A stretch of DNA of 64,000 nt, from assembly GCF_000016525.1 (NCBI RefSeq), contig NC_009515.1, forward strand, positions 1,762,501-1,826,500, given 5' to 3'. A model generated the notes under the pieces. The model ran no database searches, had not been told where the DNA came from, and was given only the letters and a program-made list of their open reading frames with translations. Source of the DNA: Methanobrevibacter smithii ATCC 35061. Lineage in GTDB: Archaea > Methanobacteriota > Methanobacteria > Methanobacteriales > Methanobacteriaceae. The position numbers were made by a program, and so were the translations under genes. Below, in pieces: positions 30,964 to 57,427 of the stretch. How positions within the stretch are numbered: position 1 is the stretch's first letter; every line of letters starts with the position of its first letter.

Positions 30964-31878
30964 TCATAATTTCTCTTTGTATGCTTGCTTAAATAAGCTT
31001 ATAAAGTAATCAATATCTTCATCATTAGCTATTTTCATTTCATAATCACCAATACCATGGTGGCCAATATTGGAAACATCTCGGGTTTTGTTAAATGGAT
31101 CTATGAGTTTAGTATTTTTTAAATTAATCCAACCTTTTAATTGTCCTTTAAATGCTTCAATTGAAATTATAATTTTATTACTGGTTTTAAATACAATATA
31201 TAATTTAGTTGTAACAATTTCAATATCTTCAAATTCATTTAAGATTCTTTCTTTTAAGTTTTCGTATAATTCTTTTATATTATCAGGTTTATTATTAAAA
31301 CACATTTCTTCAGTGTATTTAATAATTTCTTTATTAACATCTTCTTTTTTATTCGTTGTTTTAACTTCTTTAATTGATGCTTTATTCTCAGAAATATTTA
31401 ATTTATCATATAATACTGTATTATTTGAATATTTGGTTACCTTCCATAATTCAAAAGCCAAATCATTAAATTCTATTGATTTTAATTGGTATGTGGTGTA
31501 GTTTGGTGCTATAAACATTATTTTAGATTGTGTAAAATCAATATCTTCTTTTCCATAATTAGTATTGAATTTCTGATTGTATTTTAGGACAAATTCAGCT
31601 TTATTATTTAAAAGTAGTGATAGATAACTGTAACCCTGGTCAATAACACTGTAATTTTTACTTTTTTTATATTCAATAATTACAAATGAGTTAGTTTCTT
31701 CATTGAAAGCTAGTGTATCAATTCTTAAGTTATCCAGTTGAAATTCACTAGCTACAAATTTTAGGTTAAATACTTCTTCCATATTATTTTCAGTTAACTT
31801 TTGAAGGTCTCTTTCGTATTTAAACTCAGTTTTCTTAATAGGTTTTAGATTATTGGCATCAATTTGATAAAGTGGCAT
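30964..31878 (-). CDS. PD-(D/E)XK-type nuclease domain protein with C-terminal DUF5655
   Basis: This 304-residue protein's N-terminal half has the restriction-like core of the NucS/DUF91 type: RIDTLAF (Asp54), then VIIEYKK (Glu69 and Lys71), and a following YSVIDQGYSYL helix. The C-terminal region (about residues 205-304: YENLKERILNEFEDIEI, KGQLKGWINLKN, GHHGIGDYEMKIAND) matches DUF5655. Such proteins occur next to restriction and phage-defence genes and are presumed DNA-binding or DNA-cutting. It borders the BREX island and faces away from its recombinase. I infer an accessory defence or repair role; its target is unknown. Confidence 0.78.
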   Translation of the reverse strand: MPLYQIDANNLKPIKKTEFKYERDLQKLTENNMEEVFNLKFVASEFQLDNLRIDTLAFNEETNSFVIIEYKKSKNYSVIDQGYSYLSLLLNNKAEFVLKYNQKFNTNYGKEDIDFTQSKIMFIAPNYTTYQLKSIEFNDLAFELWKVTKYSNNTVLYDKLNISENKASIKEVKTTNKKEDVNKEIIKYTEEMCFNNKPDNIKELYENLKERILNEFEDIEIVTTKLYIVFKTSNKIIISIEAFKGQLKGWINLKNTKLIDPFNKTRDVSNIGHHGIGDYEMKIANDEDIDYFISLFKQAYKEKL

Positions 31879-32058: not shown

Positions 32059-33096
32059 ATGAATTATAATGATATATTCCAAAAATTTTGTAGAAATCGT
32101 AATATTAAATCCAGTACCAAAAAAGGTTATGATTCTGCTTTAAGGTTATATGAAAATTTTCAAGGAAAATCTATTGAAGATTTATTTGATGAAGCACGTT
32201 TAGAAGAAAATGAAAGAATTCCTCTTAAAGATAGAAAAATAAAAAAGAGATTAATTGAATTTAGAACTTTTTTACTTAATAGTAATTTATCTCCTAATAC
32301 TTCAAAAACATATTTTTCAAAAGTAAAGACATTTTACTTACACTTTGAGTTTGAACTACCTCATTTACCTCAAGCTAAATATGATAAAATTTATGAGACC
32401 AATTATTTAGACTTACCAACTCGAGAACATATACATGAATCACTACTTATTTCATCAATTGACTTAAAAGCAGTGATACTTTTCATGTCCAGCTCAGGAA
32501 CTGCAAAAGCTGAAACTTTAAGTTTGACTGTAGAACATTTTATTCAAGGTACTCAGGAGTATCACCATGGAGGATCCATTAAATTTATTCTAGAAACTCT
32601 TGATAAAAAAACAAATGTTGTTCCAACATTTTATTTGAAAAGAATTAAAACAGATAAATATTATTATACATTTTGCTCTCCAGAAGCTAGTTTAGCTATT
32701 GTCAAATATTTAAAGACACGTGAGAATTTAAAATTGGAGGATAAATTATTTGATTTTACATCCTCATTATTGTTAACCCGATTTCAAGAAATAAATGATA
32801 AAATGGAGTGGGGATTTAAAGGAAAATATAGATTTTTTAGAAGCCATACCCTACGCAAGTTTCATGCATCAAATATTGGCCTTTCTGCTGAATATATTGA
32901 CAGTCTGCAGGGACGCAGTAAAAACGAAGTTCATGAAACATATATTAAAACAAATCCTAAAAAACTAAAAGAAATCTATAAATCAGCTATGAAAAATGTG
33001 ATGATTTATGAAAATAAAGGTCCAGAGATAAAAAAACAAGAATTTAATATAATAATTAATGTTTTTTTATCTGGAAAGGAATATAATATTATTTAA
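32059..33096 (+). CDS. Tyrosine recombinase of the BREX pglX shufflon
   Basis: This 345-residue protein has an N-terminal SAM-like core-binding domain (about 1-105, ending NSNLSPNTSKTYFSKVKTF) and a tyrosine-recombinase catalytic domain. The box II motif is SHTLRKFHASN (His-x-x-Arg) and the nucleophile is the Tyr of HETYIKTNP. Box I reads SSGTAKAETLSL, so the usual Arg looks replaced by Lys or displaced, and the usual box II His is an Arg (LQGRSK). The gene ends 4 nt inside the oppositely oriented pglX cassette C1 and is immediately upstream of the whole pglX array. No tRNA or att site is visible, so it is better read as a DNA invertase than as an integrating-element integrase (inference). 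Confidence 0.85.
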   Translation: MNYNDIFQKFCRNRNIKSSTKKGYDSALRLYENFQGKSIEDLFDEARLEENERIPLKDRKIKKRLIEFRTFLLNSNLSPNTSKTYFSKVKTFYLHFEFELPHLPQAKYDKIYETNYLDLPTREHIHESLLISSIDLKAVILFMSSSGTAKAETLSLTVEHFIQGTQEYHHGGSIKFILETLDKKTNVVPTFYLKRIKTDKYYYTFCSPEASLAIVKYLKTRENLKLEDKLFDFTSSLLLTRFQEINDKMEWGFKGKYRFFRSHTLRKFHASNIGLSAEYIDSLQGRSKNEVHETYIKTNPKKLKEIYKSAMKNVMIYENKGPEIKKQEFNIIINVFLSGKEYNII

Positions 33097-36000
33097 ATCT
33101 TTTTAAGAAGGTTTATCTTTTTGGTTTTGGAACCTTCTTTTTTAATTTCAATATTTTGGAATTTTGCATAGTTTACTTTAACACCATCATCTAAATCTAT
33201 TTCAATATTTTGGTTTGCAATGTGTGCTAGAACTTCATCATATTCTTGTGTTTCTTTTAATTGTTTTTGAAGTTTAGCTTTTTCTTTAGTTGCACGGGTT
33301 ACTTCTTGTTTTGATGTAGAATTGTTAATGATATTGTCATTATTGGTTATTTTCTGTTCTATTGCTTTTTGGGTTTTATGTAAGTAGTCTGTTCTGATTC
33401 TTGCAACTAATGATGGTTCGTATCTGTGCATATAAACTAAACAGTTGAAACCGTTATGTTTGCCGCTTGAGAATTGCCAGTATATTGGGCATTTTTTGTA
33501 TGTCCTTTTGTGGTCGTTAAAGAAGTTTTTAAGTAAGTATTGTCTTATGATTTCTCTTGATGGTTTTTTTGATTTTGATAGTGCTCCTGCAATGAAATCT
33601 AAGTTTTCTTCTAGGGTTTTTTTACCAAAACAGGTTTCAACAAATTTAGTAAAATATCCTACAATATCATCATCGAAATACGCAGTGTCTAAAACTGGAA
33701 TTATGTTGTCATCATCTGGAATAAATTTATTGTAGTTAGTGATGTTAAATTTACCTCCAGCGAATTGTAGTCCTTTTTTATCTAGTGAGTAACGTCCAAA
33801 CATGCATCCTACTGCAAAAGATATAAAAGATGTAATTAAATCATTCTTTGATAACAGATTCATTGAAATTGAATCTTTGGATATATTATAATCTAATTCA
33901 TTGGTTAACTTGTATAGTTTTATAAAGTATTTATTTAAATATTCTTCATTGCTTTTCAATTTATTAAAATCAACTTTTTGTAACTTATTAAATTTTACAA
34001 TTGATTTTTCAATTTTTCTTTCACCAAATATTAAAAGAGGATGGATTGTATAATTCCAACTTATTTCATGATTATCCCAGTTATTTTTTTGAATGATTAT
34101 ATTTTCGGATACAATTTTGTTGATTTTATTTAAATTTGAATTATCAAGTATGATGGGTATATTACTAATTGATCCTATTCCAAAATCTAACGTTGGGGAT
34201 AAAAAGGATAATACTTCCATTGTTACTTTTGAATTTAATAATGCAAATAAATAATTAAAGTAAATTTCATTTTTTATAATGCAGTTTGCTCCTTTTGAAT
34301 CAAATAAAAATCCTTGTTCATTATATCTAAAAGAGATATCACTACTACTTAATGTAGACCATGTTAATGATTTTTTAAAATGAAATTTTGGATTTCTTAT
34401 TGTTGAATGTTTAAAATTACGTATTTTATATCCATTATTTTTCCAATTAATTATTAATTCATTATTTCCAAACCATTTTCTAAACTTCCCTCCTTTATTG
34501 TAAGGAAACCATTTTTCTTTAACATTTTTGGTTTCTTCCATAGAATTACAATTAAAATTTATATTATTGAATTCCACTTCAAACCATTTTCTTAAAAATT
34601 TATCATTATTTCCAGTGGAAATTCCTGCTTTTGGATATGCATATTCAATTAATTTTTTATTTTTAAATGAATTTGTAACATTTAAACTAGCCCAATAAGC
34701 TATAGGGGAAGTTGGAATGTTAGAATATTTTTTACTATTTGAGATATATTTGTAATCAACAGGATTAGATATGGCTTTTAAAACTTTATTTCTTTGTGTA
34801 TCCATGTTTCCTTTAAAATTAGATAATTTTATATATATTCCATTGTATAAACCATTAGTTTTATTTTCATTACAAAAGATATATGTTGCTACTGGGACCA
34901 TTGCAACTTCTGTAAATGCATTATATTCTAGTTGAATTAATGAAGAAATTTCAAGATTTTTCAAAATGTATTCTCTTAATTTTTCATAAGTTTTTATGAA
35001 CATCCAATTAAAAGGAGTAATAAATCCTAAATATGCATTTGATTTTGTGAATTTAGTGTTTCTATAAATAAACATGGAAAATAAATCTTTTGAATAATCT
35101 TTGTAGTATTTTTTAGCAAAATCTTTTAAATTTTTCTCAAATTTATTCATGTAAGGAGGATTAGTCACTACAGCTGAATATTTTTTAGATAATAATTCTG
35201 CTTGATTAATTAAAGCCATTAAATCATTACTAATTATATTTGTAATATTGATATCAGTGAGTGTTGATTTAGAATTATCAATTATTTCATTTAATGATGT
35301 TCTTAAGTTGTTAAAATCAATATTTTTCACTTGAATTAAAGAACCAAATTCTTTTCCAGACTCAAATATTTCTTTTAAATAAATTACATCATTAACAATT
35401 TTTTCATCATGTTTTTGTATAAACTCAATTATTGAATCAGTGATATTTCCAGATTCCTGAATAGCATAAACATTAGGAACAATACCTTTTTGAAGTATTT
35501 TTCTATCATATTTTCTAGCTTTCATTAACACTGCAAAATAAGCTAGTTGATATGCTCTATCATCAATATCCAAACCAAAAATATTATTTTTTAAAATTAA
35601 TTCAGGAATATCTCGTTCTAAATAACCTAACTCTTTATAAATTTCAAAAAATAGATCGAATGCATAAACTAGAATGTGTCCAGATCCCATACATGGATCA
35701 AAGAATGTTAATTCTTCAACAGAAATATTCTCAGATCTTATTTCATCAAGTTTGCTTTGAGTTTCTTCATCTTGTTGTGCTTCTCCAAGATAATATTCTA
35801 AATGTTCTTTTAATGAACTGTTTGGATTTCTTTCTATCCAATATCTACCTAAAGAGTTATCAACCATATATTTAACAACCCAATCAGTTGTAAATAACTG
35901 AGTAGCAGCAGGAATATCCTCTTTTTTAATATTGCTTTTGTTAATGTTAATTACTTGATTTTTTTTCTCTGAAATATAATACTGATATAACCAACCAATA

Positions 36001-36217
36001 ATTTCAACCTGTTTTGTGAAGTCCTCTTCTGGAATTGTGTCAATTAATTGTCTTACAACACCTTCTTCACTTGTAAATGAAATATTTAACAGTAACTCTA
36101 AAGAATCATCTGTTGTTTTAAATAAACCTGGGAGAATTTCATTTAATTTATTACTTTGCTTAATAAATAAAAATCGGAATAATTCATCTAATTTATTTTC
36201 ATCTTTCAACTTGAAAA
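33093..36217 (-). pseudogene. pglX C-terminal cassette C1 (silent in this orientation)
   Basis: This minus-strand frame starts inside the repeat TTTTCAAGTTG at 36217 and reads FKLKDENKLDELF, matching residue about 144 onward of the intact PglX. It keeps the N6-adenine methyltransferase motifs DPCMGSGH and NPPYMN and the conserved end, but lacks the first about 140 residues, a promoter and a start codon. The missing N-terminal part lies just to its right, on the opposite strand (36229-36663). Inversion of segment A would join them in frame as an 1181-residue PglX. Its stop codon overlaps that of the recombinase gene by 4 nt, tail to tail. It also contains one copy of repeat B (35058-35070). 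Confidence 0.88.
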
Positions 36218-36660
36218 CTGGTGAAACTATGGATAAAACTATTTTAAAGAATTTTGCGGTAAATTCAAGAAATAAACTTATTGAAGATACAATTTATAGA
36301 TTAAGTCTACTTGGAATAACTGAAGATGAAATTCAAGACCCTATTGAAGCTGATGGGATGCAAACATTCCAAATAGGTGGCACAAATTTTAGTATTTATG
36401 ATGATGACATAAATAAACGAAAAGAGATTATTGAAGATATTGAATCTAAAGGTTTCAATAATTTTGTTGAAGAAGTTGCATACACATGGTTTAATCGTAT
36501 AATAGCTATTCGTTATATGGAAGTGAATAATTATCTACCAACTAAAACAAGAGTTTTATCCAGTGAAACAGCAGGTAAAATAGAACCAGATATTTTAACA
36601 GATGCATTAGATATTGATTTAGATTACACTCAAGAAGAAAAAGAATTAATTTTCAAGTTG
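36207..36660. other. Predicted invertible segment A (ON/OFF switch of PglX-1)
   Basis: TTTTCAAGTTG (11 bp) is at 36650-36660 on plus and, inverted, at 36207-36217. The 432-bp segment between them carries the ATG, ribosome-binding site and first 144 codons of PglX-1. Both copies have the same codon phase. Inversion yields ELIFKLKDENK, exactly the sequence of the intact PglX at that point, and places the N-terminal part behind the TATA box at 36664-36680. Confidence 0.72.
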
Positions 36661-36680: not shown

Positions 36681-36715
36681 TGTTTTTGTAAAAAATCATT
36701 TTTATAATTATCTCT

Positions 36716-38704
36716 ATTTATAGAAACTTTGATTTTTGTAATGAATACGGATATAATGCATTAATGACCCCCTTTGTATGGATGTTTATTAAAAACTATG
36801 AGAATCTAAGGAAATTTATCATTAACAATAAATCAATTTCATCATTAATTCAATTAGAATACTCAGCATTTTCAGAAGCTACTGTACCAATATGTACTTT
36901 TGTATTATCTAATTTTGATGAAAATTATGCAGGAACATATTTGAAATTATCTGAGTTTACTGGTGGAATGGATGTTCAAAAAGAAAAAGTTCTTCAGATT
37001 ATTAATGGTGATGAAATTCTTAATGATAAAAACAAGTTTATAATGAAAAAAGAAAACTTTAATTCAATTCCTGGAAATCCAATTTCATATTGGGTAAATG
37101 ATTCGATTATAGATATATTTAAGAATTCTAAGAAATTAGGGAAAATAGTAGCTCCAAAATGTGGTTTAAAAACTGGTATTACTGAAAAATATGTCCGAAA
37201 GTGGTTTGAAGTTGATTATAATAATATTGGTTTTGACATACCAAATAGAGAAATGGCTAAAAAATCTATGTTAAAATGGTTTCCTGCATCCAATGGAGGA
37301 CAATATAGAAAATGGTATGGGAATATCGAAGATGTTGTTTTTTGGTATGATGATGGTTATGAAATTAGAAATTTATTTAATCCTAATGGTAAACTTAAAT
37401 CTAGACCTCAAAACATGCAATATTATTTTAAAAAAGGGTTAACTTGGTCTGCATTAACTAGTAAAAAACTTTCATTAAGACTTTCACCAATTGGAAATAT
37501 AATAACTGGTGCAGGTTATGGATTATTTAATAATGAATTTAGTTTATTAACAATTATGGGGTTTCTTAATTCAAAGATAGCAACTTATTTTAGCAGTATT
37601 TTCTCAGAAACATTAAATTTTGAAGTGGGGATATTAAATAGAATGCCTATTCTTATTAAAGAAAATTCTGAAATAAATAAGTTAGTCTCAGATAATATAA
37701 CAATATCTAAAGAAAATTGGGATAATTATGAATTTTCATTTGATTTTATAAAACATCCTTTTATGAATTTTAATTCTGATTTGTTAAAAGAATGTTATGA
37801 GATGTACGCTTCTGATTTTAAGTTAAAATTCAATGAATTGAAAAAAAATGAAGAACAAATAAATGTATTCTTTATTCAAGAATACGATTTAAAAAACCAT
37901 ATTAAAAAAAATGTTCCTAATGAAGATATTACACTTTTTAAACCTAATTTAACTGAAGATATTAAATCTTTTATTTCTTATGCTGTTGGTTGTATGTTTG
38001 GACGTTATTCTTTAGATAATGAAGGTTTACAATTTGCAGGAGGAGAATTTAATATTGATAATTATCATAAATTCATTCCAGATGAGGATAATATTATCCC
38101 AGTTTTAGATTCTGAATATTTTGAAGATGATATTGTTAATCGTTTCGTGGAATTTGTAAAAATATGCTTTGGAGAAGAAACCTTGGAAGAAAACCTTGAT
38201 TTTATAGCTAATGCACTAGCTAAAAATAAAAAACCTTCAAGAGAAAAAATCAGAGAGTATATGCTTAAAAATTTCTTCAATGACCACAAAAAAACATACA
38301 AAAAATGCCCAATATACTGGCAGTTCTCAAGTGGGAAAGAAAATGGTTTCAATTGTCTTGTTTACATGCACCGATATGAACCAAGCTTAGTTGCAAGAAT
38401 CAGAACAGACTACTTACATAAAACACAAAAAGCTATTGAACAAGCAATAGCTAACTGTGATAATATTATAAATCACTCATCATCTAATACTGAGGTTACA
38501 AAAGCAACTAAAGAAAAATCTAAACTTCAAAAGCAATTAAAAGAAACACAAGAATATGATGAAGCTCTTGCACACATAGCAAATCAAAACATCAAAATTA
38601 ACTTAGATGATGGTGTTAAAGTAAACTATGCAAAATTCCAAAACATAGAAGTTTCAAAAGAAGGAAAGAAATCTAAAAAAATTAATTTGCTTAAAAAATT
38701 GTAA
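36716..38704 (+). pseudogene. pglX C-terminal cassette C2 (silent)
   Basis: The open frame begins within repeat B and reads IYRNFDFCNEYGYNALMTPF, aligning with PglX just after the NPPY motif. It continues through the target-recognition region to the conserved C-terminus (FSSGKENGFNCLVYMHRYEP and KKINLLKKL). It lacks the catalytic half, a promoter and a good start codon; ATG 36764 lies within the frame but without a convincing ribosome-binding site. The last about 240 residues are almost identical to C4. It ends at 38704 and C3 begins at 38705, so the cassettes abut. Confidence 0.85.
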
Positions 38705-40288
38705 CTTTATAATACAAAATTGGAATCACTAGCGAATGTTAAACAAGGTTTAGCTACTGCAGATAATAACAGATTCCTAAGATATTGGTGGGAAGTTGAT
38801 TTTAATAATATTGGGTTTTCTTCAATAAACTGCGAAGATTCAAAAAACACTAATAAAAAATGGTTTCCCTACAACAAAGGTGGGGATTATCGTAAATGGT
38901 GGGGTAATCAAGAATTTGTTGTTAACTGGGAAAACGATGGATATGAAATAAGAAATATCATAGGTCCTAATGGTAGAGTTAGATCAAGAGCCCAGAATAC
39001 TCAATTTTATTTCCATAAGTCATTAAGTTGGTCTAAAATTTCTAGTGGAAAAGTTGCATTTAGATATTACCCAAATGGATTTATTTTTGATGTAGCAGGA
39101 TGTTCTGTATTCTTAGATAAAAAAAATATAAATTATATATTTGGGTTTTTAAATTCTAATATTTGTGGAGATATTTTAGATTTAATATCTCCAACATTAA
39201 ATTACGAAGTCGGTCATGTCGCTTCACTTCCAATAATATTTGATGAATCTAAACAAAATGAAATAGAAAACTTAGTTATAACCAATATAAATATTGAAAA
39301 AGAAGATTGGGATGAAAATGAAACAAGTTGGAACTTTAAATCACATCCATTTGTTTTTTTCAAAGGAGATTCATTATCTGAAAAGTATAATTTCTGGCAA
39401 AAATACAAAACGAACCAATTTAATTATTTAAAAACAAATGAAGAAAAATTAAATAAACTATTTTATGATATATACAATGTTGATGGTGATCATGAAATTG
39501 AAGATAAATATATATCCCTTAATAAAAATGATTTAAAAAAAGATATTGAATCCATAATATCTTATTCAGTTGGATGCATGTTTGGTCGTTATAATTTAAA
39601 TCAAGGAGGCTTATGTTTCGCAGGAGGTGAATTTGATTTAAATAAGTATCATAATTTCATTCCAGATGATGATAACATTATTCCCGTATTAGACACAGCA
39701 TACTTTGATGATGATATTGTCGGATATTTCACAAAGTTTATTGAAAAATGCTTTGGTAAAGAAAAACTAGAAGAAAACTTAGATTTCATTGCAAAAGTAT
39801 TATCAAACTCATCTAAACCTTCAAGAGAAGTATTAAGAGACTATTTTTTAAAGAATTTCTTTAATAGTCATAAAAAAATCTATAAAAAACATCCTATTTA
39901 TTGGCAGTTCTCAAGTGGTAAAGAAAACGGTTTCAATTGTCTAATTTACATGCACAGATACGAGCCAAGTTTAGTTGCAAAAATAAGAACTGATTACCTG
40001 CATAAAACTCAAAAAGCTATTGAACAAAGAATAGCTAACACTAACACTATCATTAATAATTCCACTTCAAAACAAGAGGTTGCTAATATAACTAAGGAAA
40101 AAGTTAAACTTCAAAAGCAATTAAAAGAAACTCAAGAATATGATGAACTTTTAGCACATATTGCAAATCAGAACATTGAAATAGATTTGGATAACGGGGT
40201 TAAATTTAATTATGAATTATTCCAGAATATAGAAATTAAAAAAGAAGGTAAAAAATCTAAAAAATTAAATTTGCTTAAAAAGATATAA
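38705..40288 (+). pseudogene. pglX C-terminal cassette C3 (silent)
   Basis: This 527-residue open frame (LYNTKLESLANVKQGLATAD onward) begins exactly at repeat C and aligns with residue about 652 onward of the intact PglX, including the block RFLRYWWEVDFNNIGFSS that the two share. It supplies an alternative distal target-recognition region and C-terminus. It has no promoter or start of its own. Its stop codon is 2 nt from that of the intact pglX on the other strand, tail to tail, the classical arrangement of an invertible specificity cassette. Confidence 0.86.
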
Positions 40289-41849
40289 AATTAAATCTTT
40301 TTTAGAAGATTAATTTTTTTATTTTTCATTCCTTCTCTTGAAATAATAATATCTTGAAGCATTGAATAATTTTCTTTTATTCCATCATCTAAATTAAAAG
40401 ATAAATTTAAATTTGAAACATGGTTTAATGCTTCATCATATCCAATTGTTTCTTCAAGTTGTTTAATTAATTTATTTTTTTCTTTTGTGATAATTGCTTT
40501 TTCAGAACTTGAATCAGAAGTATTTAGCAAATTTTCACAATCTAATAATCTCTGTTCAATTGCTTTTTGGGTTTTATGTAAATATTCTGTTCTAATTCTA
40601 GCAATTATTTGTGAATCAATTCTATGAGAATAGATTAAACAGTTAAATGCATTATTACTTCCACTAGAAAATTGCCAGTAGATTGGGCATTTTTTATATA
40701 ATTTCTTATGGTCATTGAAAAAATGTTTAAGTAAATATTCTCTTATTTTTTCTCTACTTGTTTTATTATTCTTAATTAATGCATTAGCTATAAACTCCAA
40801 GTTTTCTTCAAGAGTTTCTTCTCCAAAGCAAATTTTTACAAATTCAACAAAACGACCAACCATGTCGTCTTCAAAATATTCAGTATCCAATATTGGAATA
40901 ATATTGTCATCATCAGGAATAAACCTAGAATAATTCTCAATATTAAAATTTGAATTTGTAGATATTAAACAATCATCATCTAAACTATATCTACCAAACA
41001 TACATCCAATTGCATATGAAACAAATGATTTTATATCCATTTCATAATTTGAACTATTTATTGAAACATGTTTATCCTCAACATTATAATTTGAATCAAT
41101 ATCATATATTTCACTAAAAATATTATTTAATTTTGTTTCATTTGATTTAAGTTGATTAAATTGTTCTTTTTTATAAGATTCCCAAGATTTAAATGAGTTC
41201 TTAAGATTATTTTCATTAAATTTTAATAATGGATGTTTCTTAAAGTTCCATGAAGTTTCATAATCATCCCAATCATCTTTACAAATCTTAATATTTTCCA
41301 AAACAATATTATTTATCTCTTCAACTTTATTTTCATCAATAATAATGGGTAATGAAGCAATATGGCCTATTTCATAGTTTAATGTTGGTGAAATTAAGTC
41401 TAAAATATTTCCACAAACATTTGAATTTAAAAAACCAAAAATATAATTCAAATAATCATCAACAAATACAGAACATCCTGCTACATCAAAAAGAAATCCA
41501 TTTGGATAATATCTAAATGCAATTTTTCCGCTTGAAATCTTAGACCAACTTAATGATTGATGAAAATAAAATTGGGAATTTCTTAAAACAGATTTTTTAA
41601 AGTTTCTTAATTCCTCACCATCATTTTCCCAATTGATAATAAATTCTTGATTTCCCCACCATTTTCTAAATGATCCACCTTTATTATAAGGAAACCATTT
41701 TTTATTAGTGTTTTTTGAATCTTCGCAGTTTATTGAAGAAAACCCAATATTATTAAAATCAACTTCCCACCAATATCTTAGGAATCTTGTATTTTCACCA
41801 GTTTGTAATCCAACTTTAATATCTCCTAATGAACTTAAGTTTGTATTAT
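38709..41849. other. Predicted invertible segment C (swaps distal PglX-2 with C3)
   Basis: ATAATACAAA (10 bp) at 38709-38718 on plus is inverted at 41840-41849 inside the intact pglX. Both begin at the second codon position (FNNTNLSS in pglX, LYNTKLES in C3). Inversion would replace PglX residues from about 655 to the end with those of C3 without disturbing the frame. Confidence 0.65.
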
Positions 41850-43809
41850 TAAAACAAGCTATTAAATTATCATCAATCCAATATGCTATTGGACTTCCAG
41901 GGATTTTATCAAAATTAAATTGTTTTATTATGTACTTGTTTTTATCATTAAAAAACAATGGATTCACAATATCATTTTCAACATCAGATAATTTCACATG
42001 ATAAAAAGTACTGTTGTAGTTCATCAAGTTTATTTTTCTAAATACTGTTGCTGATGTTCCAAATGCAATTTTCATTACCATATTATCCATGTGCAATAAA
42101 TTTGAAATGGTTGTTGTTTCAATTAATTTCTTTCTGAACTTCTCAAAACTTGACAAAAACATCCATGATTGCATTGTAACCATACAATTAAATCCATAAT
42201 CTTTTATCATTTCTAAACCTTTTTCTAAAAATACAGCAAATAAATCTGTTTTAGTTAAAGGAAATTTAGATTTAATATAATCTTTTAAATTTGGATTCAT
42301 ACCATTATTTCCCATATAAGGAGGATTTGTTACTACAACATCATATTTTTTAGATAATAATATGGATTGATTAATAATATTTTTCAAAAGATTAATTTCA
42401 TCTAAATACTTAAGTTTAGTTAAATTATTATTTGATTCAAATTTAGAAATTAAATTATTTATTTTTTCAAAATCAATAGGTTTTATAGTTAATATGCTTC
42501 CAAATTCTTTTCCATTTTTAAAAGAAGATATTAGATAATTGAAAGCATCTTCAATTGTTCTGTCTTGTGAAATCAATTCTTCAATAAACTCTTTAGAAAT
42601 TGAATTTGTCTCTTCAATTGAGCATAATAATGGTGAAATACCTTTTGTTAATATTCTACGATTATATTTTCTAGCTTTCATTAAAACTGCAAAATAAGCT
42701 AGTTGATATGCTCTTTTATCAATATCTAAACCATAAATATTGTTTTTTAAGATTGATTCACAAGCATCTTTTTCTGTGAATCCTTCTGAAACATATATGT
42801 CCATAAGAACTTCAAAAACATAAACTAAAATATGGCCTGAACCCATACAAGGATCAATAACAGTAATATCTTCTGGTTTTAATATTTCAGATTCTTTTCT
42901 AATTGTAATTAATTGTTGTTCAACTTCTGGCTCTTGTTTCGCTTCATCAACATAATATTTCCATTTTGATTTTAATTCATTATTAGGATGGCCTTCTAAC
43001 CACAATCTTCCTACAGAATTTTCAACCATATATTTTACAATCCAATCAGGTGTAAATAATTGTGTTGCAGCAGGAATTCTCTCTTTAGAAATCTTTATTC
43101 GTTTTTTAAGATTTGCAAAAGTTTCATCTTTTAATTCTGTGTTATAAAATTGATATAACCATCCTATTACTTCAACTTGACTTTCAAAGTCTTTTTCAGG
43201 AATTGTATCAATTAATTGTCTTACAACCCCATCTTCATTGGTAAATGAAATGTTTAATAATAGTTCTAAATAGTCATCGGTTTTTTCAAATAAACCTGGA
43301 AGTATTTCATTTAATTTATTACATTGTTTTATAAATAAGAATCTGAATAATTCATCTAATTTATTTTCATCTTTAAGTTTAAAAATTAACTCTTTATCTT
43401 CTTGAGTGTAATCCAAATCAACATCAAATGCTTCAGTTATTATATCAGGTTCTATTTTACCTGCAGTTTCAGAGGATAAAACTCTTGTTTTAGTTGGTAG
43501 GAAATTATTAATTTCCATAAATCTTATAGCAATTATACGATTAAACCATGTATAAGCTACCTCTTCAACAACATTTTCAAAACCTTTTTGCTTAACTTCT
43601 TTTACTAATCTTTCTCTTTTTGAAATATCATTATCATATATACTATTAGTTGATCCACCAAGTTGATATGTTTCTATTCCATTGGCTGAGCTTATTGGTT
43701 CATAAATGTTATCTTTATCAATTCCAACTAAACTCATTTTATATTCTACATCTTCCATTAACTTCTTACGAGAATTAATGGCAAATGTTTTAATTGCAGT
43801 TTTATCCAT
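40291..43809 (-). CDS. pglX: BREX adenine-specific DNA methyltransferase PglX (intact)
   Basis: This is a 1172-residue PglX, the full family length. It has an N-terminal helical region (MDKTAIKTFAINSRKKLMED), SAM motif I DPCMGSGH (about residue 319) and catalytic motif NPPY (about residue 495, TNPPYMGNNG), then a long target-recognition region and a conserved C-terminus ending KKINLLKKI. PglX methylates a specific non-palindromic site at N6-adenine and marks self DNA for BREX. It is transcribed leftward from a promoter at 43831-43846, away from the brxABC operon. It holds two internal recombination repeats: D at residue about 414 and C at about 654. The state shown is therefore 'own C-terminus' ON. 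Confidence 0.95.
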   Translation of the reverse strand: MDKTAIKTFAINSRKKLMEDVEYKMSLVGIDKDNIYEPISSANGIETYQLGGSTNSIYDNDISKRERLVKEVKQKGFENVVEEVAYTWFNRIIAIRFMEINNFLPTKTRVLSSETAGKIEPDIITEAFDVDLDYTQEDKELIFKLKDENKLDELFRFLFIKQCNKLNEILPGLFEKTDDYLELLLNISFTNEDGVVRQLIDTIPEKDFESQVEVIGWLYQFYNTELKDETFANLKKRIKISKERIPAATQLFTPDWIVKYMVENSVGRLWLEGHPNNELKSKWKYYVDEAKQEPEVEQQLITIRKESEILKPEDITVIDPCMGSGHILVYVFEVLMDIYVSEGFTEKDACESILKNNIYGLDIDKRAYQLAYFAVLMKARKYNRRILTKGISPLLCSIEETNSISKEFIEELISQDRTIEDAFNYLISSFKNGKEFGSILTIKPIDFEKINNLISKFESNNNLTKLKYLDEINLLKNIINQSILLSKKYDVVVTNPPYMGNNGMNPNLKDYIKSKFPLTKTDLFAVFLEKGLEMIKDYGFNCMVTMQSWMFLSSFEKFRKKLIETTTISNLLHMDNMVMKIAFGTSATVFRKINLMNYNSTFYHVKLSDVENDIVNPLFFNDKNKYIIKQFNFDKIPGSPIAYWIDDNLIACFNNTNLSSLGDIKVGLQTGENTRFLRYWWEVDFNNIGFSSINCEDSKNTNKKWFPYNKGGSFRKWWGNQEFIINWENDGEELRNFKKSVLRNSQFYFHQSLSWSKISSGKIAFRYYPNGFLFDVAGCSVFVDDYLNYIFGFLNSNVCGNILDLISPTLNYEIGHIASLPIIIDENKVEEINNIVLENIKICKDDWDDYETSWNFKKHPLLKFNENNLKNSFKSWESYKKEQFNQLKSNETKLNNIFSEIYDIDSNYNVEDKHVSINSSNYEMDIKSFVSYAIGCMFGRYSLDDDCLISTNSNFNIENYSRFIPDDDNIIPILDTEYFEDDMVGRFVEFVKICFGEETLEENLEFIANALIKNNKTSREKIREYLLKHFFNDHKKLYKKCPIYWQFSSGSNNAFNCLIYSHRIDSQIIARIRTEYLHKTQKAIEQRLLDCENLLNTSDSSSEKAIITKEKNKLIKQLEETIGYDEALNHVSNLNLSFNLDDGIKENYSMLQDIIISREGMKNKKINLLKKI

Positions 43810-43921
43810 AATTTCACCAAGTTTAATTAAAACTATATATATCTATTTGGTGATATTAAATTGTTGCTATGTTTATCGGGAAATTCAAAACAGTCAAATA
43901 ATATTTTGAATTAACAAGACA
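42561..43921. other. Predicted invertible segment D (PglX-2 expression unit)
   Basis: ACAAGACA (8 bp; 12 bp with one mismatch, ACAAGACANAAC) is at 43914-43921 on plus at the left edge of C4 and inverted at 42561-42568 within pglX. Codon phase is the same (SQDRT in pglX, QDKTN in C4). Inversion would turn the promoter and first 414 residues of PglX around to read into C4. Confidence 0.55.
43810..43850 (-). promoter_or_regulatory. Promoter and ribosome-binding site of pglX
   Basis: On the minus strand an AT-rich TATA box (AGATATATATAGTT, about 43831-43846) stands about 29 nt upstream of ATG 43809, with GGTGAAATT directly before the start. The short leader fits archaeal promoters. Confidence 0.55.
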
Positions 43922-46221
43922 AAACCAATGAAAAAGATTGGAATTATTTATATAATATATTTAAAAATGCAAAAGAATATGGTAGTATTTTAGATATTAA
44001 AAATATTAATTTTGATGAATTATTTAATGATATAGGTACTTATGAATCAGATAAAAATAATTTAAATCAATATAAATACCAAAATGAAATTCAATTAATG
44101 AAAAATATTATCCAACAATCAAAATTTCTTGTTAAAAATTATGATATTGTTGCCACAAATCCTCCATACATGGGAAATAGTGGTATGAATCCAAATTTAA
44201 AAGATTATTTAAAGAAAAATTATCCAAATTCAAAATCAGATTTGTTTGCAGTATTTATTGAAAAATGTCATGATTTCTGTAATGAAAAAGGTTTTGTTGC
44301 AATGATTACTCAACAATCATTCATGTTTTTATCAACATTTGAAAAATTAAGGGTTGAATTAATTAATAATCACACCATAATTAATATGGCTCATTTAGGA
44401 GCTCATGCATTTGAAGAAATTGGTGGTGAAGTTGTACAAGCAACAACTTTTGTTAATAAAAATAATTTAATTGAAAATTACAAATCAACATTTCACAGAT
44501 TAACTGAGTTTAATTCAGAAAGCAAAAAAGAAGAAGAGTTTCATAATGATGAAAATAAATTTATATTATCACAAAGTATTTTCAATTTAGCACCTTCTTT
44601 TGAATTTATTTTTTGGGAAAATCACAATATCTTAAATTCATTTAAATTATATCCTCCATTAAGTAAGTATGGTAAACCTTCAAGAGGTTTAGCAACATAT
44701 AATGACAATAAATTCTTACGATATTGGTATGAAGTATCTTTTAATAAAATAGGTTTTGGGTGTTCTTCTGTTGATGATTCTATAAAATCTAAAAAAAAAT
44801 GGTTCCCTTACAATAAAGGTGGGGATTATAAAAAATGGTATGGAAACAATAACTTTGTTGTTAATTTCTATAATGGAGGTGAAGAAATTAAAAAATCTGG
44901 AAAGGGTGCTTTTAGTAATATTAATTATTATTTTAAAAAAGGATTAACATGGTCAAGAATTTCTAGTAGTTATTTTGGAGTGAGATATCATGATGTTGGT
45001 TTTATAATTGGTGATGCTGGACCGTCTGTTTTAATGAATGATGATTCAAATATTTTTTATATTTTTGGAATATTATTGTCTAATTTTACATTAAGAATAA
45101 TATCTGCTTTAAATTCAACAATGACTTTTCAAGTTGGTGATTTAAATAAAGTTCCAATCAATATGAATAACCATGAAAAAGAAAATATTGAAAAATTAGT
45201 AAAATCCTGTATTTATATTTCAAAAGAGGAATGGGATGAATTTGAATTATCATGGGACTTTAAAAACCATTATGCAATAAAATTTAGTCAAGATTCATTT
45301 GAAAATACTTTTTTTAAATATATGGATTTTAAAAATAATCAATATAATAAATTAAAGAAAAATGAGTTTATATTGAATAATTTAATTAATAAAATTTATA
45401 ATATTACTGATATTCAAGATAGTGTAGTGTCTATTAAAAATGAAATTACATTAACTAAAATACATTTAGAAGAATTTGTAAAATCATTTATTTCATATGC
45501 TGTTGGTTGTATGTTTGGTCGTTACTCTTTAGACAATGAAGGTTTACAATTTGCTGGAGGTGAATTTAATATTAATAATTACTCTAAATTCATTCCAGAT
45601 GATGATAATATTATTCCAGTCTTAGATTCTGAATACTTTGAAGATGATATTGTTAATCGTTTTGTAGAATTTGTAAAAACATGCTTTGGAGAAGAAACCT
45701 TAGAAGAAAACCTTGATTTTATAGCTAATGCACTAGCTAAAAATAAAAAACCTTCAAGAGAAAAAATAAGAGATTATCTCCTTAAAAACTTTTTCAATGA
45801 CCACAAAAAAACATACAAAAAATGTCCAATTTACTGGCAATTTTCAAGCGGCAAAGAAAACGGATTCAATTGTCTAGTTTATATGCACAGATATGAACCA
45901 AGTTTAGTTGCAAGAATCAGAACAGATTACTTGCATAAAACTCAAAAAGCTATTGAGCAGGCAATAGCTAACTGTGATAATATAATTAATCACTCATCAT
46001 CAAAACAAGAAGTTGTAAAAGCAACAAAAGATAAAGCTAAACTTCAAAAACAATTAAAAGAAACACAGGAGTATGATGAAGCACTATCTCACATAGCTAA
46101 TCGAAATATAGAAATTGACCTAGATGATGGTGTTAAAGTTAATTATGCTAAGTTCCAAAATGTCCAGGTTTCAAAAGAAGGTAAAAAATCTAAAAAAATT
46201 AACCTTCTAAAGAAACTTTAA
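43915..46221 (+). pseudogene. pglX C-terminal cassette C4 (silent)
   Basis: The frame is open from 43915 (QDKTNEKDWNYLYNIFKNAK) to the TAA at 46219-46221, 768 residues. It aligns with PglX from about residue 414, so it includes the NPPY motif (ATNPPYMGNSG) but not SAM motif I. It is an alternative second half of PglX with its own target-recognition region. ATG 44098 inside it is unlikely to be used. It ends about 70 nt before brxA. Its C-terminal quarter is nearly identical to that of C2, which could also allow homologous recombination. Confidence 0.86.
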
Positions 46222-46294: not shown

Positions 46295-46888
46295 ATGAAG
46301 TATAGTGCTGGAATTATGAGTCATTCATTTTGGTATCTTGAAACAAAAAACACTGCTGAATATCTAGCTGAAGATATTTCAAAAAAAGAGTTAATGGAGT
46401 TATCTTTAACTGAAAATATTTATCAGGTAGATAGTGAACGTAGAGCACGTGAATTGACTAATGTATGTTATCGTCGATTAAATGGATTTTCTAATGATTT
46501 ATTAATATATTTATCAACTTGTGATCAAAATTCAGGTAAATTATTAGTTTTAATTTCAATTTTAAGAAATGATAAATTATTTTTTGAGTTTATGCATGAA
46601 GTCTTCAGAGAGCATATTATTTTAGGAAATTACACTATAAAAGATTCAGATTTAGATATTTTTTTCATGAATAAATCTAACCAAAGTGAAGTAATTGAAA
46701 ATTGGAAAGATACAACTCTTCGAAAGGTTAAAACTAATTATAAAAATTTTTTAATTGAAGCAGACCTTTTAGAAAAAGAAGAAGGGAATTATAAAATTAT
46801 TTTACCATTTGTAGATTTTAAATTAAAAGAATTATTAACTCAAAATAATTTAACACCATTTTTAAATGCTATATCTGGAGGAATCTGA
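46295..46888 (+). CDS. brxA: BREX protein BrxA
   Basis: This 197-residue protein matches BrxA (DUF1819): MKYSAGIMSHSFWYLETKNT at the N-terminus, then SERRARELTNVCYRRLNGFS. BrxA is a small, conserved, helical DNA-binding component of type 1 BREX and is essential in some systems. It is the first gene of a tightly packed brxA-brxB-brxC-DUF1802-pglZ-brxL operon. A weak AGTGAT site precedes the ATG and the upstream 73 nt carry the promoter. The stop codon overlaps the brxB start by 1 nt. Confidence 0.9.
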   Translation: MKYSAGIMSHSFWYLETKNTAEYLAEDISKKELMELSLTENIYQVDSERRARELTNVCYRRLNGFSNDLLIYLSTCDQNSGKLLVLISILRNDKLFFEFMHEVFREHIILGNYTIKDSDLDIFFMNKSNQSEVIENWKDTTLRKVKTNYKNFLIEADLLEKEEGNYKIILPFVDFKLKELLTQNNLTPFLNAISGGI

Positions 46889-47466
46889 TGAATATTGATG
46901 AGAAGCTTAGTAAAATTGAACCAAAAATTAAAGAGCCTTCATTTCTTGAGAATAAAGGTTTAAGTAATGAAGTAGGTTATTATATTTTTGATTATGATCC
47001 GAAATATGAACTTAAAGTTCGTGAAGAAGTTTCAAGGATTAAAAATAAAATCAATAATTCAAGTTATGCATTTACTATTAAAGAATTTGATTTATATGAA
47101 ATTATCATTGATATTTTAAATGAAAGAGGTTATTTAGAAAAAGTTTTTAATTTTGAAGAAAAAAAAGGGATAGAATTTACAACTAAAGCAATTATCAGTC
47201 TTTTAAAATTAAATTCAGATAACAATAATGTTATTGTAAACTATATTTTAGAGAGAACTCCAGATAACTGTGTTGTATTTTTAACTGGTGTTGGAAAGGC
47301 TTATCCAATATTAAGATCACATAATGTTTTAAATAACTTACATCAAAAGTTAGACGAGGTTCCAGTTGTTTTATTTTTCCCAGGACAATATTCTGGTAGA
47401 GAATTAGTTTTATTTAATACTATTGAAGGAAGTAACTATTATCGAGCATTTCCATTGATTAGGTGA
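46888..47466 (+). CDS. brxB: BREX protein BrxB
   Basis: This 192-residue protein matches BrxB (DUF1788): helical start, YYIFDYDPKYELKVREEVSR, and a conserved second half with VVFLTGVGKAYPILRSHNVL and VPVVLFFPGQYSGRELVLFN. The latter motif (FPG.Y.G..L.LF) is the family hallmark. BrxB is a small essential BREX subunit of unknown mechanism that associates with BrxC and PglZ. It overlaps brxA by 1 nt and ends 4 nt before brxC. Confidence 0.92.
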   Translation: MNIDEKLSKIEPKIKEPSFLENKGLSNEVGYYIFDYDPKYELKVREEVSRIKNKINNSSYAFTIKEFDLYEIIIDILNERGYLEKVFNFEEKKGIEFTTKAIISLLKLNSDNNNVIVNYILERTPDNCVVFLTGVGKAYPILRSHNVLNNLHQKLDEVPVVLFFPGQYSGRELVLFNTIEGSNYYRAFPLIR

Positions 47467-47470
47467 ACAT

Positions 47471-50400
47471 ATGCAAATAAAAAACATGTTTGAAAAGGAT
47501 ATCGACAGGGATATCAAAGGAGTAATTAAAGTCGGTCAAAATGATGATGAAAATATTTATCAGGAACTGGATGAATATGTTGTTACAAATGAACTATTGA
47601 AACATTTTACTAAGTTTTTTTCAAGTTATAATAAGGGAATACAAAGTCCCACTGATGATATTGGTGTTTGGATTTCAGGGTTCTTTGGAAGCGGTAAATC
47701 TCACTTTTTAAAAATTTTATCATATATTCTAGATAGTAATCTTAAAGTTCATGGAAGAAGACCAATTGATTTTTTCAAGGAAGATGGAAAAATCAAAGAT
47801 TCAATGGTTATTGGAGATATGGAAGCTGCAACAAATGTTAGTTCTGATGTAGTTTTATTTAATATAGATTCTAAATCATCATCACAATCAAGTTCAAATA
47901 AAGATGATATTTTAAATGTATTTGTAAAAGTTTTTAATGAAATGCAGGGCTATTGCGGAGGAATGCCCTTTTTAGCAGATTTTGAAAAAAAATTAGATGC
48001 AAAAAATAAATTTGAAGAGTTTAAAACAGAATTTGAAAATATCAATGGAATGGATTGGGAAGAATCAAGAGATGAATTCTACTTTATAAGTGATGATATT
48101 ATACAAAGTGTTGTAAATATTGGATTCATGAGTGAAAACGAAGCTAACAATTGGGCTTCAAAAGCAGAAGAAAACTTTAAGTATTCAATTGAAGATTTTG
48201 CAAATGAAGTAAATGAATACTGTATCAATAAAGGAAATAATCATCATGTAATATTTTTAGTAGATGAAGTTGGACAATATATAGCAGATGATACTAAATT
48301 AATGCTAAACTTACAAACTATAGTTGAAGAATTAGGAATTAAATGTCATGGAAAGGCTTGGGTTGTTGTTACAAGCCAACAAAACATTGATGACATCACC
48401 AGAGACATAAAAGGAATGGATTTTTCTAAAATTCAGGGAAGATTTAAAACACGTTTATCCCTATCCTCTTCAAATGTAGATGAAGTAATTAGGAGACGGA
48501 TTCTAGCAAAAACTGATGTTGCCCAACAAACTTTAGAAGCAGAATATCCAAGCTTTGAGCCTATTTTAAAAAATATTTTAACTTTTGAAAAATCTGCAGA
48601 AATGAAAACATATGAAAATGCAAGAGACTTTGCAAATATCTATCCATTTGTTCCTTATCAATTCAATCGTGTTCAGGATGTTTTAACATCAATAAGGGAA
48701 CATTCCTCATCAGGAAAGCATATGGCTGATGGTGAGCGTTCAATGCTTGCACTCTTCCAAGAATCTGCAATTGAAATTAAAAATGGTTCTGAGGGCCAAT
48801 TAGTTCCATTCAATATATTTTATAATGCTATTGAACAATTTATTGATCATACTAACAGTCAGGTAATTAATAAAGCACGGGACAATAAGGAATTGTATCC
48901 TTTTGATGTTGAAGTTTTAAAAGTACTTTTCATGATTAAATATGTAAAAGAAATTAAATCTACATCTAAAAATTTAACCACATTGTTAATTTCTAACATT
49001 AATGAAGACAGACTGGAGTTACAAAATAAAGTAGATAAATCATTATCCAGATTACTTGAACAAACTTTAATCCAAAAAAATGGGGAGGTTTATTCATTTT
49101 TAACAAATGAAGAACAAGACATTAATCGTGAAATTAAAAATCAGATAGTTGATAATGGTGAAGTTTTAGATAATGCTGCAAATAGGATTTTCCAAGAAAT
49201 TTACCCTAAAAACAAATATCGTTATAGCAATAGATATAATTTCCAATTTAATCAATCAATTGATAATAAAAAGATTAATAATAGAGAATTTGATATTGGA
49301 ATGAGAATAATTACTCCGTTTTATACATCAGATTTAAGTGATTGCTCTCAAGCTACTTTTGAAGAAAGTAATATGCATAATATTTTAAAAGGATTATCAG
49401 AATCTAACAATGAAGTTGTTGTACATTTACTTTCTGATTTAACAGTATTTGATGAAATAAAAGAAGCACTGCAAATTCAAAAATATTTAACTAAAAAAAG
49501 TGCTGAAATGAAGGTTGAACTCAGAAGCAGAAAACAAGAGGAATATAATGATAAAATAGAAAGAATCAAATTATTCCTTGAATCTTCTATTAAAGATGCA
49601 ATAATTTATATTAAAGGAGATAAAGTAGATATTGCTGAAAAAAATGTTGAATCAAGACTTGATGAATCAATGGGCAAGTTAGTTGATAAAGTTTATAATA
49701 AATTAAGTTATATGGACTTTGCACCTGATAAAAGTGATATTAAAAAAGAATTAACAAATGAATATCAGCAGACACTGATAGCTAGTGAAACAAAAGCTAT
49801 GAATGCAGTAAATGATATGGACAGTTATATTTCAGATCAGTCAAAACTACATAATACTCTTACACTAAAAAGTCTAATAAACAGATATTCAAAAGCTCCT
49901 TATGGTTTTGTCAATTTGGATGTGCAATGGTTACTTGCTTCATTATTTGCACAAAAAAGAATTGTCTTAACAATTAATAGTGATGAAATTTCTTTAAGAA
50001 ATACTGATGCCTCCAAAATTTTAGATTATTTAACAAAAAATGAATACTTAGAAAAACTATTAGTATCTGAAAAAGAAGTTATTGATAGTAGTAAAATTAG
50101 GAAAGTTAAAGAAGTTTTAAAAGAGGTTTACAGTTTGAATTTAACTCATGATAATGATGAAAGAATCATGGATGAATTTAAACGTGTTAATACATCTAAA
50201 ATTGAAGAAATTGATAAATGTCTTTTAGAATTTAGAATATCAAATAAATATCCTGGCAAATCAATATTGGAAGAATCAAAAGAATTATTTAATGATGCTA
50301 ACAATAAGAAAAACACATTGCAATTCTATAACTATGTGTCTGATAATGATGAAGAATTTTTGGATTTGGCTGATGATTTAGATCCTGTTTTAGCATTCTT

Positions 50401-51055: not shown

Positions 51056-51065
51056 GGTTATTTAA

Positions 51066-51581
51066 ATGTCAGAATCAATAACTAAATGTTTAAATGAATG
51101 GAATGCAACAATTGAAGCATTAGGTCAAGGAAAACAATCAATTTTAATTAGAAAATATGGTACAAATGTTGATGACTTTCTTTTATTTCCAACAGTAAGT
51201 TATGCCCTTAAAGATAATTATTTAGATAGTTTCCAAGAAGATTATAAAGATTTTGTTAGAGAAAATGCACTTCCAAATAAAAAGGATTCTAAATTTGAAG
51301 TAAAATATTATGCAAAAGTTGAAAAAGTTGTAGAAAAATCCTCAACTAGAATTGGTTCTTTAAATAATTATCATATCTGGACAAGAGACCATGTAAAATC
51401 ATACTTAGGTAATTCAAAGGCACAAGTTTGGATTTTAAGAGTATATGAACTTGAAAGTCCCCAATATTTAAACAGGACCCGTGGAATGAGATATGCTAAT
51501 GTAGATATGGAAGTTAAATTGGATGATTTAAAACCTGTATTGTCTGATAGTGAATTTGAAAGTATTTTAAAAGGGATTTAA
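51066..51581 (+). CDS. DUF1802 protein in the BREX operon
   Basis: This 171-residue protein shows DUF1802 features: ECLN-type helix then NEWNATIEALGQGKQSILIR, FLLFPTVSYALK, a tyrosine-rich middle, QVWILRVYELESPQ and a closing VLSDSEFESIL. DUF1802 occurs near restriction and other defence genes, but no activity is established. Here it sits between brxC and pglZ, the place that pglX holds in canonical type 1 BREX, 10 nt after brxC and abutting pglZ directly. It is therefore probably co-expressed and may be a core or regulatory subunit of this variant (inference). Confidence 0.78.
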   Translation: MSESITKCLNEWNATIEALGQGKQSILIRKYGTNVDDFLLFPTVSYALKDNYLDSFQEDYKDFVRENALPNKKDSKFEVKYYAKVEKVVEKSSTRIGSLNNYHIWTRDHVKSYLGNSKAQVWILRVYELESPQYLNRTRGMRYANVDMEVKLDDLKPVLSDSEFESILKGI

Positions 51582-54086: not shown

Positions 54087-54098
54087 GAGTGATATTCA

Positions 54099-57417: not shown

Positions 57418-57427
57418 GAGGGATAAC

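What the first reader, a model, noticed from the sequence alone, without database searches (positions are those of the whole stretch)
32059..33096. Shufflon recombinase with altered catalytic boxes and unrelated target repeats
The tyrosine recombinase keeps HxxR and the nucleophilic Tyr, but box I reads SSGTAKAETLSL (Lys or Ala where Arg is expected) and the second-box His is replaced (LQGRSK). The four repeat pairs are identical within each pair but share no clear consensus between pairs. If this one enzyme makes all inversions it must accept diverse short core sequences, needing mainly identity between partners.
Basis: partly seen in the sequence, partly recalled or inferred. Interest (0 to 1): 0.6.

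Follow-up and report, generated by a model that had tools for sequence, protein, structure and literature searches.

The report
Archaeal BREX shufflon with rewired recombinase
A gut methane-making archaeon carries a set of flippable gene pieces that can swap the DNA-recognition part of its anti-virus BREX system, next to a recombinase that lacks one standard catalytic arginine and seems to use a different one instead.

Summary
The ORF at 32059-33096 is a tyrosine recombinase (AlphaFold pLDDT 86; XerA, Cre and SSV1 folds). Box I has Ala149 where Arg is expected, and the second His is Arg286. These changes mark the whole family: Arg I is absent from all 47 aligned homologs. The enzyme is probably active. 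Arg195, two residues before the catalytic Lys197, is invariant in those 47, and across 100 homologs Arg I and this Arg never co-occur (86 Arg195 only, 11 Arg I only, 3 neither; one event on a tree). The MSTV1 provirus integrase, whose provirus is reported to excise, shares the pattern. CTnDOT integrase is the published precedent.

The locus is a type 1 BREX whose pglX is split into two genes and silent cassettes. Four short inverted repeats (11, 13, 10, 8 bp) sit at cassette edges. Inverting each in silico keeps or restores full-length frames: 16 states, five proteins, one gene ON/OFF. Crossover junctions for repeats I and II occur in other species.

The repeats are not wholly unrelated: they weakly fit an A-rich dyad seen at invertible segments beside sister recombinases. 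Pure identity-driven recombination is unproven. New variant of a known kind (pglX/hsdS shufflons).

The parts
32059..33096 (+). Tyrosine recombinase (345 aa): Ala149 in Arg-I column, Arg195/Lys197 hairpin, His263-x-x-Arg266, Arg286 in second-His column, Tyr295
   Evidence: ORF; 47-homolog columns; AlphaFold pLDDT 86.3; XerA Z 16.9, Cre Z 14.6, SSV1 Z 13.5
33093..36218 (-). pglX gene 1 body (residues 142-1172), cut off from its start in this assembly
   Evidence: tblastn; BREX_1_MTaseX 1221.7 bits
36229..36660 (+). N1: pglX gene 1 start segment (residues 1-145), in the OFF orientation here
   Evidence: tblastn; inversion at repeat I gives an 1181-aa ORF
36207..36217 (-). Repeat I, copy at gene 1 body
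   Evidence: exact TTTTCAAGTTG
36650..36660 (+). Repeat I, copy at N1 end
   Evidence: exact match; recombinant junction in another species, L103:45
35058..35070 (-). Repeat II, copy inside gene 1 body (residue ~524)
   Evidence: exact TATTTATAGAAAC
36715..36727 (+). Repeat II, copy at start of cassette P2
   Evidence: recombinant junction in L104:166 with one mismatch
36722..38704 (+). P2: silent pglX cassette (residues 530-1160)
   Evidence: tblastn; inversions I+II give an 1185-aa ORF
38709..38718 (+). Repeat III, copy at start of cassette P3
   Evidence: ATAATACAAA
41840..41849 (-). Repeat III, copy in gene 2 (residue ~654)
38711..40288 (+). P3: silent pglX cassette (residues 655-1156)
   Evidence: tblastn; inversion III gives a 1179-aa ORF
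40291..43809 (-). pglX gene 2, intact 1172 aa in this assembly
   Evidence: PglX 1524.6 bits PADLOC; BREX_1_MTaseX 1362.8 bits
42561..42568 (-). Repeat IV, copy in gene 2 (residue 414)
   Evidence: ACAAGACA; same place in L101
43914..43921 (+). Repeat IV, copy at start of cassette P4
   Evidence: G066 contig C19 ends exactly at this sequence (L183)
43915..46221 (+). P4: silent pglX cassette (residues 415-1160)
   Evidence: tblastn; inversion IV gives a 1182-aa ORF
46295..46888 (+). BrxA
   Evidence: PADLOC 255.1 bits
46888..47466 (+). BrxB
   Evidence: PADLOC 238.1 bits
47471..51055 (+). BrxC
   Evidence: PADLOC 1435.3 bits
51582..54086 (+). PglZ
   Evidence: PADLOC 1040.1 bits
54099..56147 (+). 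BrxL
   Evidence: PADLOC 1090.9 bits

Best explanation
The gene encodes the invertase of a type 1 BREX specificity shufflon in a Methanobrevibacter genome. It is a tyrosine recombinase that has lost box-I Arg; Arg195, two residues before the catalytic Lys197, takes over that role (inferred), with His263, Arg266 and Tyr295 kept and Arg286 replacing the second His. It recombines short inverted repeats at the edges of pglX pieces. Repeat I flips the start segment of pglX gene 1 (ON/OFF); repeat II swaps its C-terminal part; repeats III and IV give gene 2 alternative C-terminal parts, which should hold the target-recognition region. Sixteen arrangements yield five PglX proteins, so a clone would become a mixture of methylation/defence specificities. 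Shown: gene anatomy, in-frame outcomes, crossover junctions for I and II in other species, family-wide residue swap. Inferred: that this enzyme makes the inversions, that Arg195 is catalytic, that specificity changes.
For: Four repeats at cassette edges. In-silico inversion keeps full-length frames: 16 states, 5 proteins of 1172-1185 aa. Recombinant junction of I in L103 (G066) and of II in L104 (G089), plus FIYRN-FDFC proteins in L101, L102, L104, L106 against FIYRN-TKFT in the window. 7 of 7 genomes whose recombinase is at least 87% identical have pglX next to it. Sister recombinases at 80-81% lie between two hsdS genes sharing 16-17-bp inverted repeats (L039) or just after BrxL (L036, L037). 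R195 and K197 47/47, Arg I 0/47; 86 / 11 / 3 / 0 table. Fold. The provirus integrase relative (40% identical) lies about 0.1 kb inside the published provirus edge; excision reported (PMC12134362); an 11-bp repeat found at both provirus ends, the att length given in PMC8371274.
Against: No inversion seen within one strain: junctions compared are from different species. No junction of the other state was found for III or IV. A 98-bp perfect inverted identity lies 52 bp past repeat III, which homologous recombination could use. The Arg swap is a single event on the tree, so the 100-sequence table is not independent evidence. No coordinates were available, so Arg195 was not placed in an active site. 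L181 (G071) has a pglX shufflon with no recombinase on its contig, but the contig ends inside the array.
Confidence: 0.74

Rival explanations
1. The recombinase accepts nearly any short sequence and needs only identity between partners, as CTnDOT and Tn916-type enzymes tolerate little homology.
For: Cores I-IV differ; one homologous locus appears to break at another core, TAAAATTC, that fails the motif test (p about 0.87). Precedents for low homology need: Tn1549/Tn916 and CTnDOT (PMC5871717, passages).
Against: Window pairs weakly fit a dyad learned from other loci (Fisher 4.5e-4); sister invertible segments and viral arrays use well-conserved sites, so the family is not generally indiscriminate.
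Confidence: 0.25
2. Inversions arise by homologous recombination between the related pglX pieces; the recombinase is a bystander.
For: 98-bp perfect inverted identity next to repeat III and several 27-41-bp identities between pieces. In pneumococcus a paper reports hsdS rearrangement without known recombinases (PMC6620402, abstract).
Against: Repeats I, II and IV are 8-13 bp, with unrelated flanks at I; crossovers in other species fall exactly within I and II; the gene stays next to pglX in 7 of 7 close relatives.
Confidence: 0.15
3. The recombinase is a degenerate, inactive remnant; present arrangements are frozen.
For: Arg I and second His replaced.
Against: Open in orthologs down to 56% identity with catalytic residues invariant in 47 of 47; a relative with the same substitutions belongs to an excising provirus.
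Confidence: 0.06
4. Another enzyme, such as the MSTV1 integrase or a chromosomal XerA, makes some of the inversions in trans.
For: The genome holds one further family member; its 11-bp att shares 7 of 11 bases with repeat IV by eye.
Against: The provirus is not part of the conserved linkage; other species with the shufflon carry the linked gene.
Confidence: 0.08

Closest known systems
Lactobacillus rhamnosus BREX-1 with full and partial pglX separated by an integrase (PMC7513527, passages)
   Same: Type 1 BREX, intact plus partial pglX, adjacent site-specific recombinase, phase variation of PglX
   Different: Archaeon; two pglX start segments, three silent C-terminal cassettes, an ON/OFF start segment; short repeats with unlike cores; Arg-I-less recombinase
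Pneumococcal cod/spnIII hsdS locus with PsrA (PMC7096588, passages)
   Same: One tyrosine recombinase reported to invert three different repeat pairs (15, 298, 85 bp) of a specificity gene; the longer repeats contain an IR1-like sequence
   Different: Type I RM, not BREX; repeats partly long; relation of PsrA to this family not tested here
CTnDOT integrase subgroup (PMC8138268, passages)
   Same: Arg I missing in some members and replaced by an Arg further downstream
   Different: Mobile-element integrases, mainly of Bacteroidetes, with an arm-binding domain; that the substitute (Arg285) also lies two before the Lys (Lys287) is recalled, not read
MSTV1 / Msmi-Pro1 integrase of the same genome (PMC12134362, PMC8371274, passages)
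   Same: 40% identical; SSGCARRETLNL box I, R-x-K, LQGK; 11-bp att
   Different: Integrates and excises a provirus; not an invertase
XerA
   Same: Best fold match, 4a8e Z 16.9 over 244 residues, rmsd 9.5
   Different: NCBIfam XerA model 27 bits against a cut-off of 220; canonical pentad absent

Membership tests
Tyrosine recombinase superfamily | Catalytic fold | tested here: met
   Foldseek and VIA-align to XerA, Cre, lambda Int, SSV1
Tyrosine recombinase superfamily | Lys, HxxR and Tyr | tested here: met
   K197, H263, R266, Y295 in 47 of 47
Tyrosine recombinase superfamily | Arg I in box I | tested here: not met
   A149; 0 of 47 Arg. Not decisive: CTnDOT integrase lacks it too
IntCTnDOT subgroup | Arg I lost with alternative conserved Arg downstream | tested here: met
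   R195 47 of 47; 86/11/3/0
IntCTnDOT subgroup | N-terminal arm-binding domain | tested here: inconclusive
   Pfam Phage_int_SAM_5 at 4-93; no separate arm domain searched
IntCTnDOT subgroup | Common descent | not tested
   No CTnDOT sequence was compared
XerA | NCBIfam XerA cut-off | tested here: not met
   27 of 220 bits
Type 1 BREX | brxA, brxB, brxC, pglX, pglZ, brxL together | tested here: met
   PADLOC and NCBIfam
Specificity-gene shufflon | Inverted repeats whose inversion yields intact alternative genes | tested here: met
   16 states, 5 proteins
Specificity-gene shufflon | Inversion seen in a population and dependent on the recombinase | not testable with these tools
   Only cross-species junctions

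The most novel reading that the evidence does not exclude
A whole family of archaeal recombinases moved its catalytic Arg I onto the lysine hairpin, as CTnDOT integrase may have done independently, and with it gained relaxed site use: a single enzyme recombines unlike short cores guided by a loose A-rich dyad and partner identity, and the family has been adopted again and again in gut methanogens and their viruses to shuffle BREX, restriction, adhesin and viral cassette genes.
Probability: 0.3. Interest if true: 0.72.

Novelty: new variant of a known kind. Interest (0 to 1): 0.57.

Why it matters
It would be a case of programmed switching of BREX specificity in an archaeon, a major methanogen of the human gut, and it offers an explanation of how a recombinase without box-I Arg can work. 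It gives a testable site-directed prediction (R195) and a set of natural target sites to ask how specific such enzymes are. The wider family links defence, surface-protein and viral cassette loci in gut methanogens through one recombinase type.

Tried and rejected
Rejected or weak: (1) Lys150 as the Arg-I substitute: not kept in 3 of 47. (2) Sequence search of PDB chains with the family profile: the four hits at E<1 are unrelated proteins. (3) First dyad test used a null that did not share the repeat between copies and overstated significance (p 0.0005-0.022); replaced by the shared-core null. In that test the spacing was not resolved: gaps 3, 4, 5, 6, 7, 8 gave Fisher 0.0087, 0.0016, 4.5e-4, 8.6e-6, 3.4e-4, 6.1e-5; complement and reversed controls 0.76 and 0.27; six column shuffles 0.34, 0.042, 0.15, 0.0042, 0.13, 0.014, so three of six fell below 0.05. 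The external sites were aligned to a 5-base centre by me before scoring. (4) L101 site TAAAATTC and the L039 hsdS start sites do not fit the dyad (p 0.83-0.92 and 0.27-0.58); the L039 central site does (0.008-0.011). (5) L101 repeat IV fits at gap 6 (0.0015), not gap 5 (0.15). (6) Pattern count of repeat I in 67 genus genomes: 25 have a match, and the backward-read control also matches often, so the count alone says nothing. (7) G071 (L181) as a shufflon without recombinase: inconclusive, contig ends in the array. (8) Inverted-repeat scans near the other recombinases found nothing convincing in most of the loci scanned.

Full report
What the window is. The window lies in a single-contig archaeal genome of 1,853,160 bases. 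A paper on Methanobrevibacter smithii PS gives provirus MSTV1 at 1,693,231-1,732,055 (PMC12134362, passages read). The genome's second family member lies at 1,693,339, and an 11-bp direct repeat lies at 1,693,232 and 1,732,045. I therefore take the genome to be M. smithii PS; that its size matches is recalled.

The locus. BrxA, BrxB, BrxC, PglZ and BrxL lie in order at 46295-56147. Before them lie six pglX pieces: gene 1 body (residues 142-1172, minus strand), its start segment N1 (1-145, plus strand), P2 (530-1160), P3 (655-1156), intact gene 2 (minus strand, 1172 aa) and P4 (415-1160). The best NCBIfam match is BREX-1 PglX. The recombinase sits at the outer end, convergent with gene 1.

The repeats. 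Exact inverted repeats lie where each piece begins to be homologous to its partner: I 11 bp, II 13 bp, III 10 bp, IV 8 bp. I inverted the region in silico at each pair and in all combinations. Sixteen arrangements are reachable. Gene 2 is full length in all 16 (three alternative proteins of 1172, 1179 and 1182 aa); gene 1 becomes full length (1181 or 1185 aa) in the eight states with repeat I inverted. So repeat I is an ON/OFF switch for gene 1, and II, III and IV exchange C-terminal parts. That the reading frames are kept is the strongest internal evidence that these are real crossover sites.

Junctions in other species. At repeat I the window shows ...caccagTTTTCAAGTTGaaagatg and ...aattaaTTTTCAAGTTGtaacatt; L103 (G066) shows ...caccagTTTTCAAGTTGtaacact, the cross product. 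Its contig begins 44 bases before the repeat, inside the start of N1. At repeat II the window has FIYRN-TKFTKSN in gene 1 and silent YRN-FDFCNEY in P2; four of the six other loci examined (L101, L102, L104, L106) have FIYRN-FDFC in one frame, and L104 shows the DNA junction with one mismatch in the repeat. L103 shows only the silent form; L105 gave no match. For III and IV no cross product was found. Repeat IV recurs at the same residue in L101, and a G066 contig (L183) ends exactly at it, as expected if the population is mixed; repeats alone can also break assemblies. Between-species comparison cannot prove inversion within a strain.

The enzyme. The AlphaFold model has mean pLDDT 86.3. Structural matches: XerA 4a8e Z 16.9 (rmsd 9.5, 244 residues), Cre 1crx Z 14.6 (rmsd 3.4, 246), SSV1 catalytic domain 3vcf Z 13.5 (rmsd 2.9, 151). 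In alignment A2 (47 sequences) Lys197, His263, Arg266 and Tyr295 are invariant, Arg I is never Arg (A 42, G 3, V 1, S 1), and the second-His column is R 45 / K 2. Arg195 is invariant and lies two residues before Lys197, at the end of a hairpin strand in the model (E190-195). Among all homologs in the loci held (107 hits, 100 distinct with both columns), 86 have Arg195 only, 11 Arg I only, 3 neither and 0 both. The three exceptions are L066 (its gene is broken into two blast pieces), L145 (its His and Lys columns are also changed) and L147 (a fragment). The Arg-I clade is monophyletic (11 of 11 tips, support 0.994, 99 sequences), so this is one swap, not many. In the CTnDOT subgroup the catalytic Arg sits in one of two alternative places, with biochemical support cited there (PMC8138268, passages). 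That its substitute is Arg285, two before Lys287, is my recollection and would make the two cases positionally the same.

Activity of the family. The MSTV1 integrase has the same layout (SSGCARRETLNL, R-x-K-T, LQGK), and the provirus is reported to excise at its attachment sites. So lack of Arg I does not mean lack of activity. The review of archaeal recombinases gives 11 bp for the att of this provirus (PMC8371274, passages).

What sister enzymes sit next to. Relatives occur in 111 of 138 family genomes. At 87-100% identity, 7 of 7 sit by pglX. At 80-81%, two follow BrxL and one lies between two hsdS genes with 16-17-bp inverted repeats. Further out (55-68%), five loci have a segment of about 280-440 bp bounded by inverted repeats right after the recombinase (L046, L055, L059, L061, L063). 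Three large ORFs that I scanned beside such or similar recombinases (L046, L058, L059) are Big-domain adhesin-like proteins. Two viral contigs carry 10 and 8 direct or inverted copies of GTGAAAGAT upstream of the recombinase (L091, L093; a ninth L093 match lies elsewhere).

Is there a common site? The five bounded segments share a dyad, about TTATGTGTTTC-N5-GAAACACATAA. A matrix from these ten copies scored the four window pairs against a null that keeps the shared repeat: p 0.004, 0.076, 0.072, 0.036 for I-IV, Fisher 4.5e-4. Other spacings also score, some better, and three of six shuffled matrices fall below 0.05, so I regard this as modest evidence for loose A-rich arms. One L101 site and the L039 hsdS start sites do not fit.

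Novelty. pglX phase variation beside an integrase is known in Lactobacillus (PMC7513527, passages), and one recombinase acting on three repeat pairs is known for PsrA (PMC7096588, passages). Searches for M. smithii with BREX (0 papers) and for related combinations (listings seen) showed no report of an archaeal pglX shufflon in the held open-access library. A survey of archaeal RM systems has no occurrence of Methanobrevibacter, 'inver' or recombinase in its main text (PMC10609329, term search), and a 2026 BREX survey none of recombinase or inversion (PMC12839542, term search). Subscription papers were not searched.

Noticed in passing
L091 3090-7974; L093 1196-5660: Viral contigs with 10 and 8 copies of GTGAAAGAT at the start of repeated cassettes (about 150 aa in L093), some inverted, upstream of a related recombinase: a likely archaeal-virus shufflon.
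   Followed up: partly
L046 4107-4384, L055 11198-11604, L059 11137-11576, L061 11077-11353, L063 11156-11591: Segments bounded by inverted repeats right after the recombinase, invertible-promoter-like; large ORFs scanned nearby are adhesin-like.
   Followed up: partly
L039 8137-12350: Two inverted hsdS genes flank a recombinase 80% identical to the window's, sharing CRDEPELRFPE and LLEKK repeat segments.
   Followed up: partly
window 38771-38868 / 41690-41787: 98-bp perfect inverted identity between P3 and gene 2, a sign of recent exchange beyond the 10-bp repeat.
   Followed up: no
window 56368-58366: ShosT/ShosA-like defence pair next to BrxL.
   Followed up: no
window 30964-31878: PADLOC PDC-S18 candidate defence protein beside the recombinase.
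   Followed up: no
L183 end (G066:C19:35058): Assembly contig ends exactly at the first base of repeat IV.
   Followed up: yes
G000 C1 1693232 and 1732045: Provirus att GTAGACACGAC shares 7 of 11 bases by eye with CAAGACAGAAC of repeat IV; may be chance.
   Followed up: no
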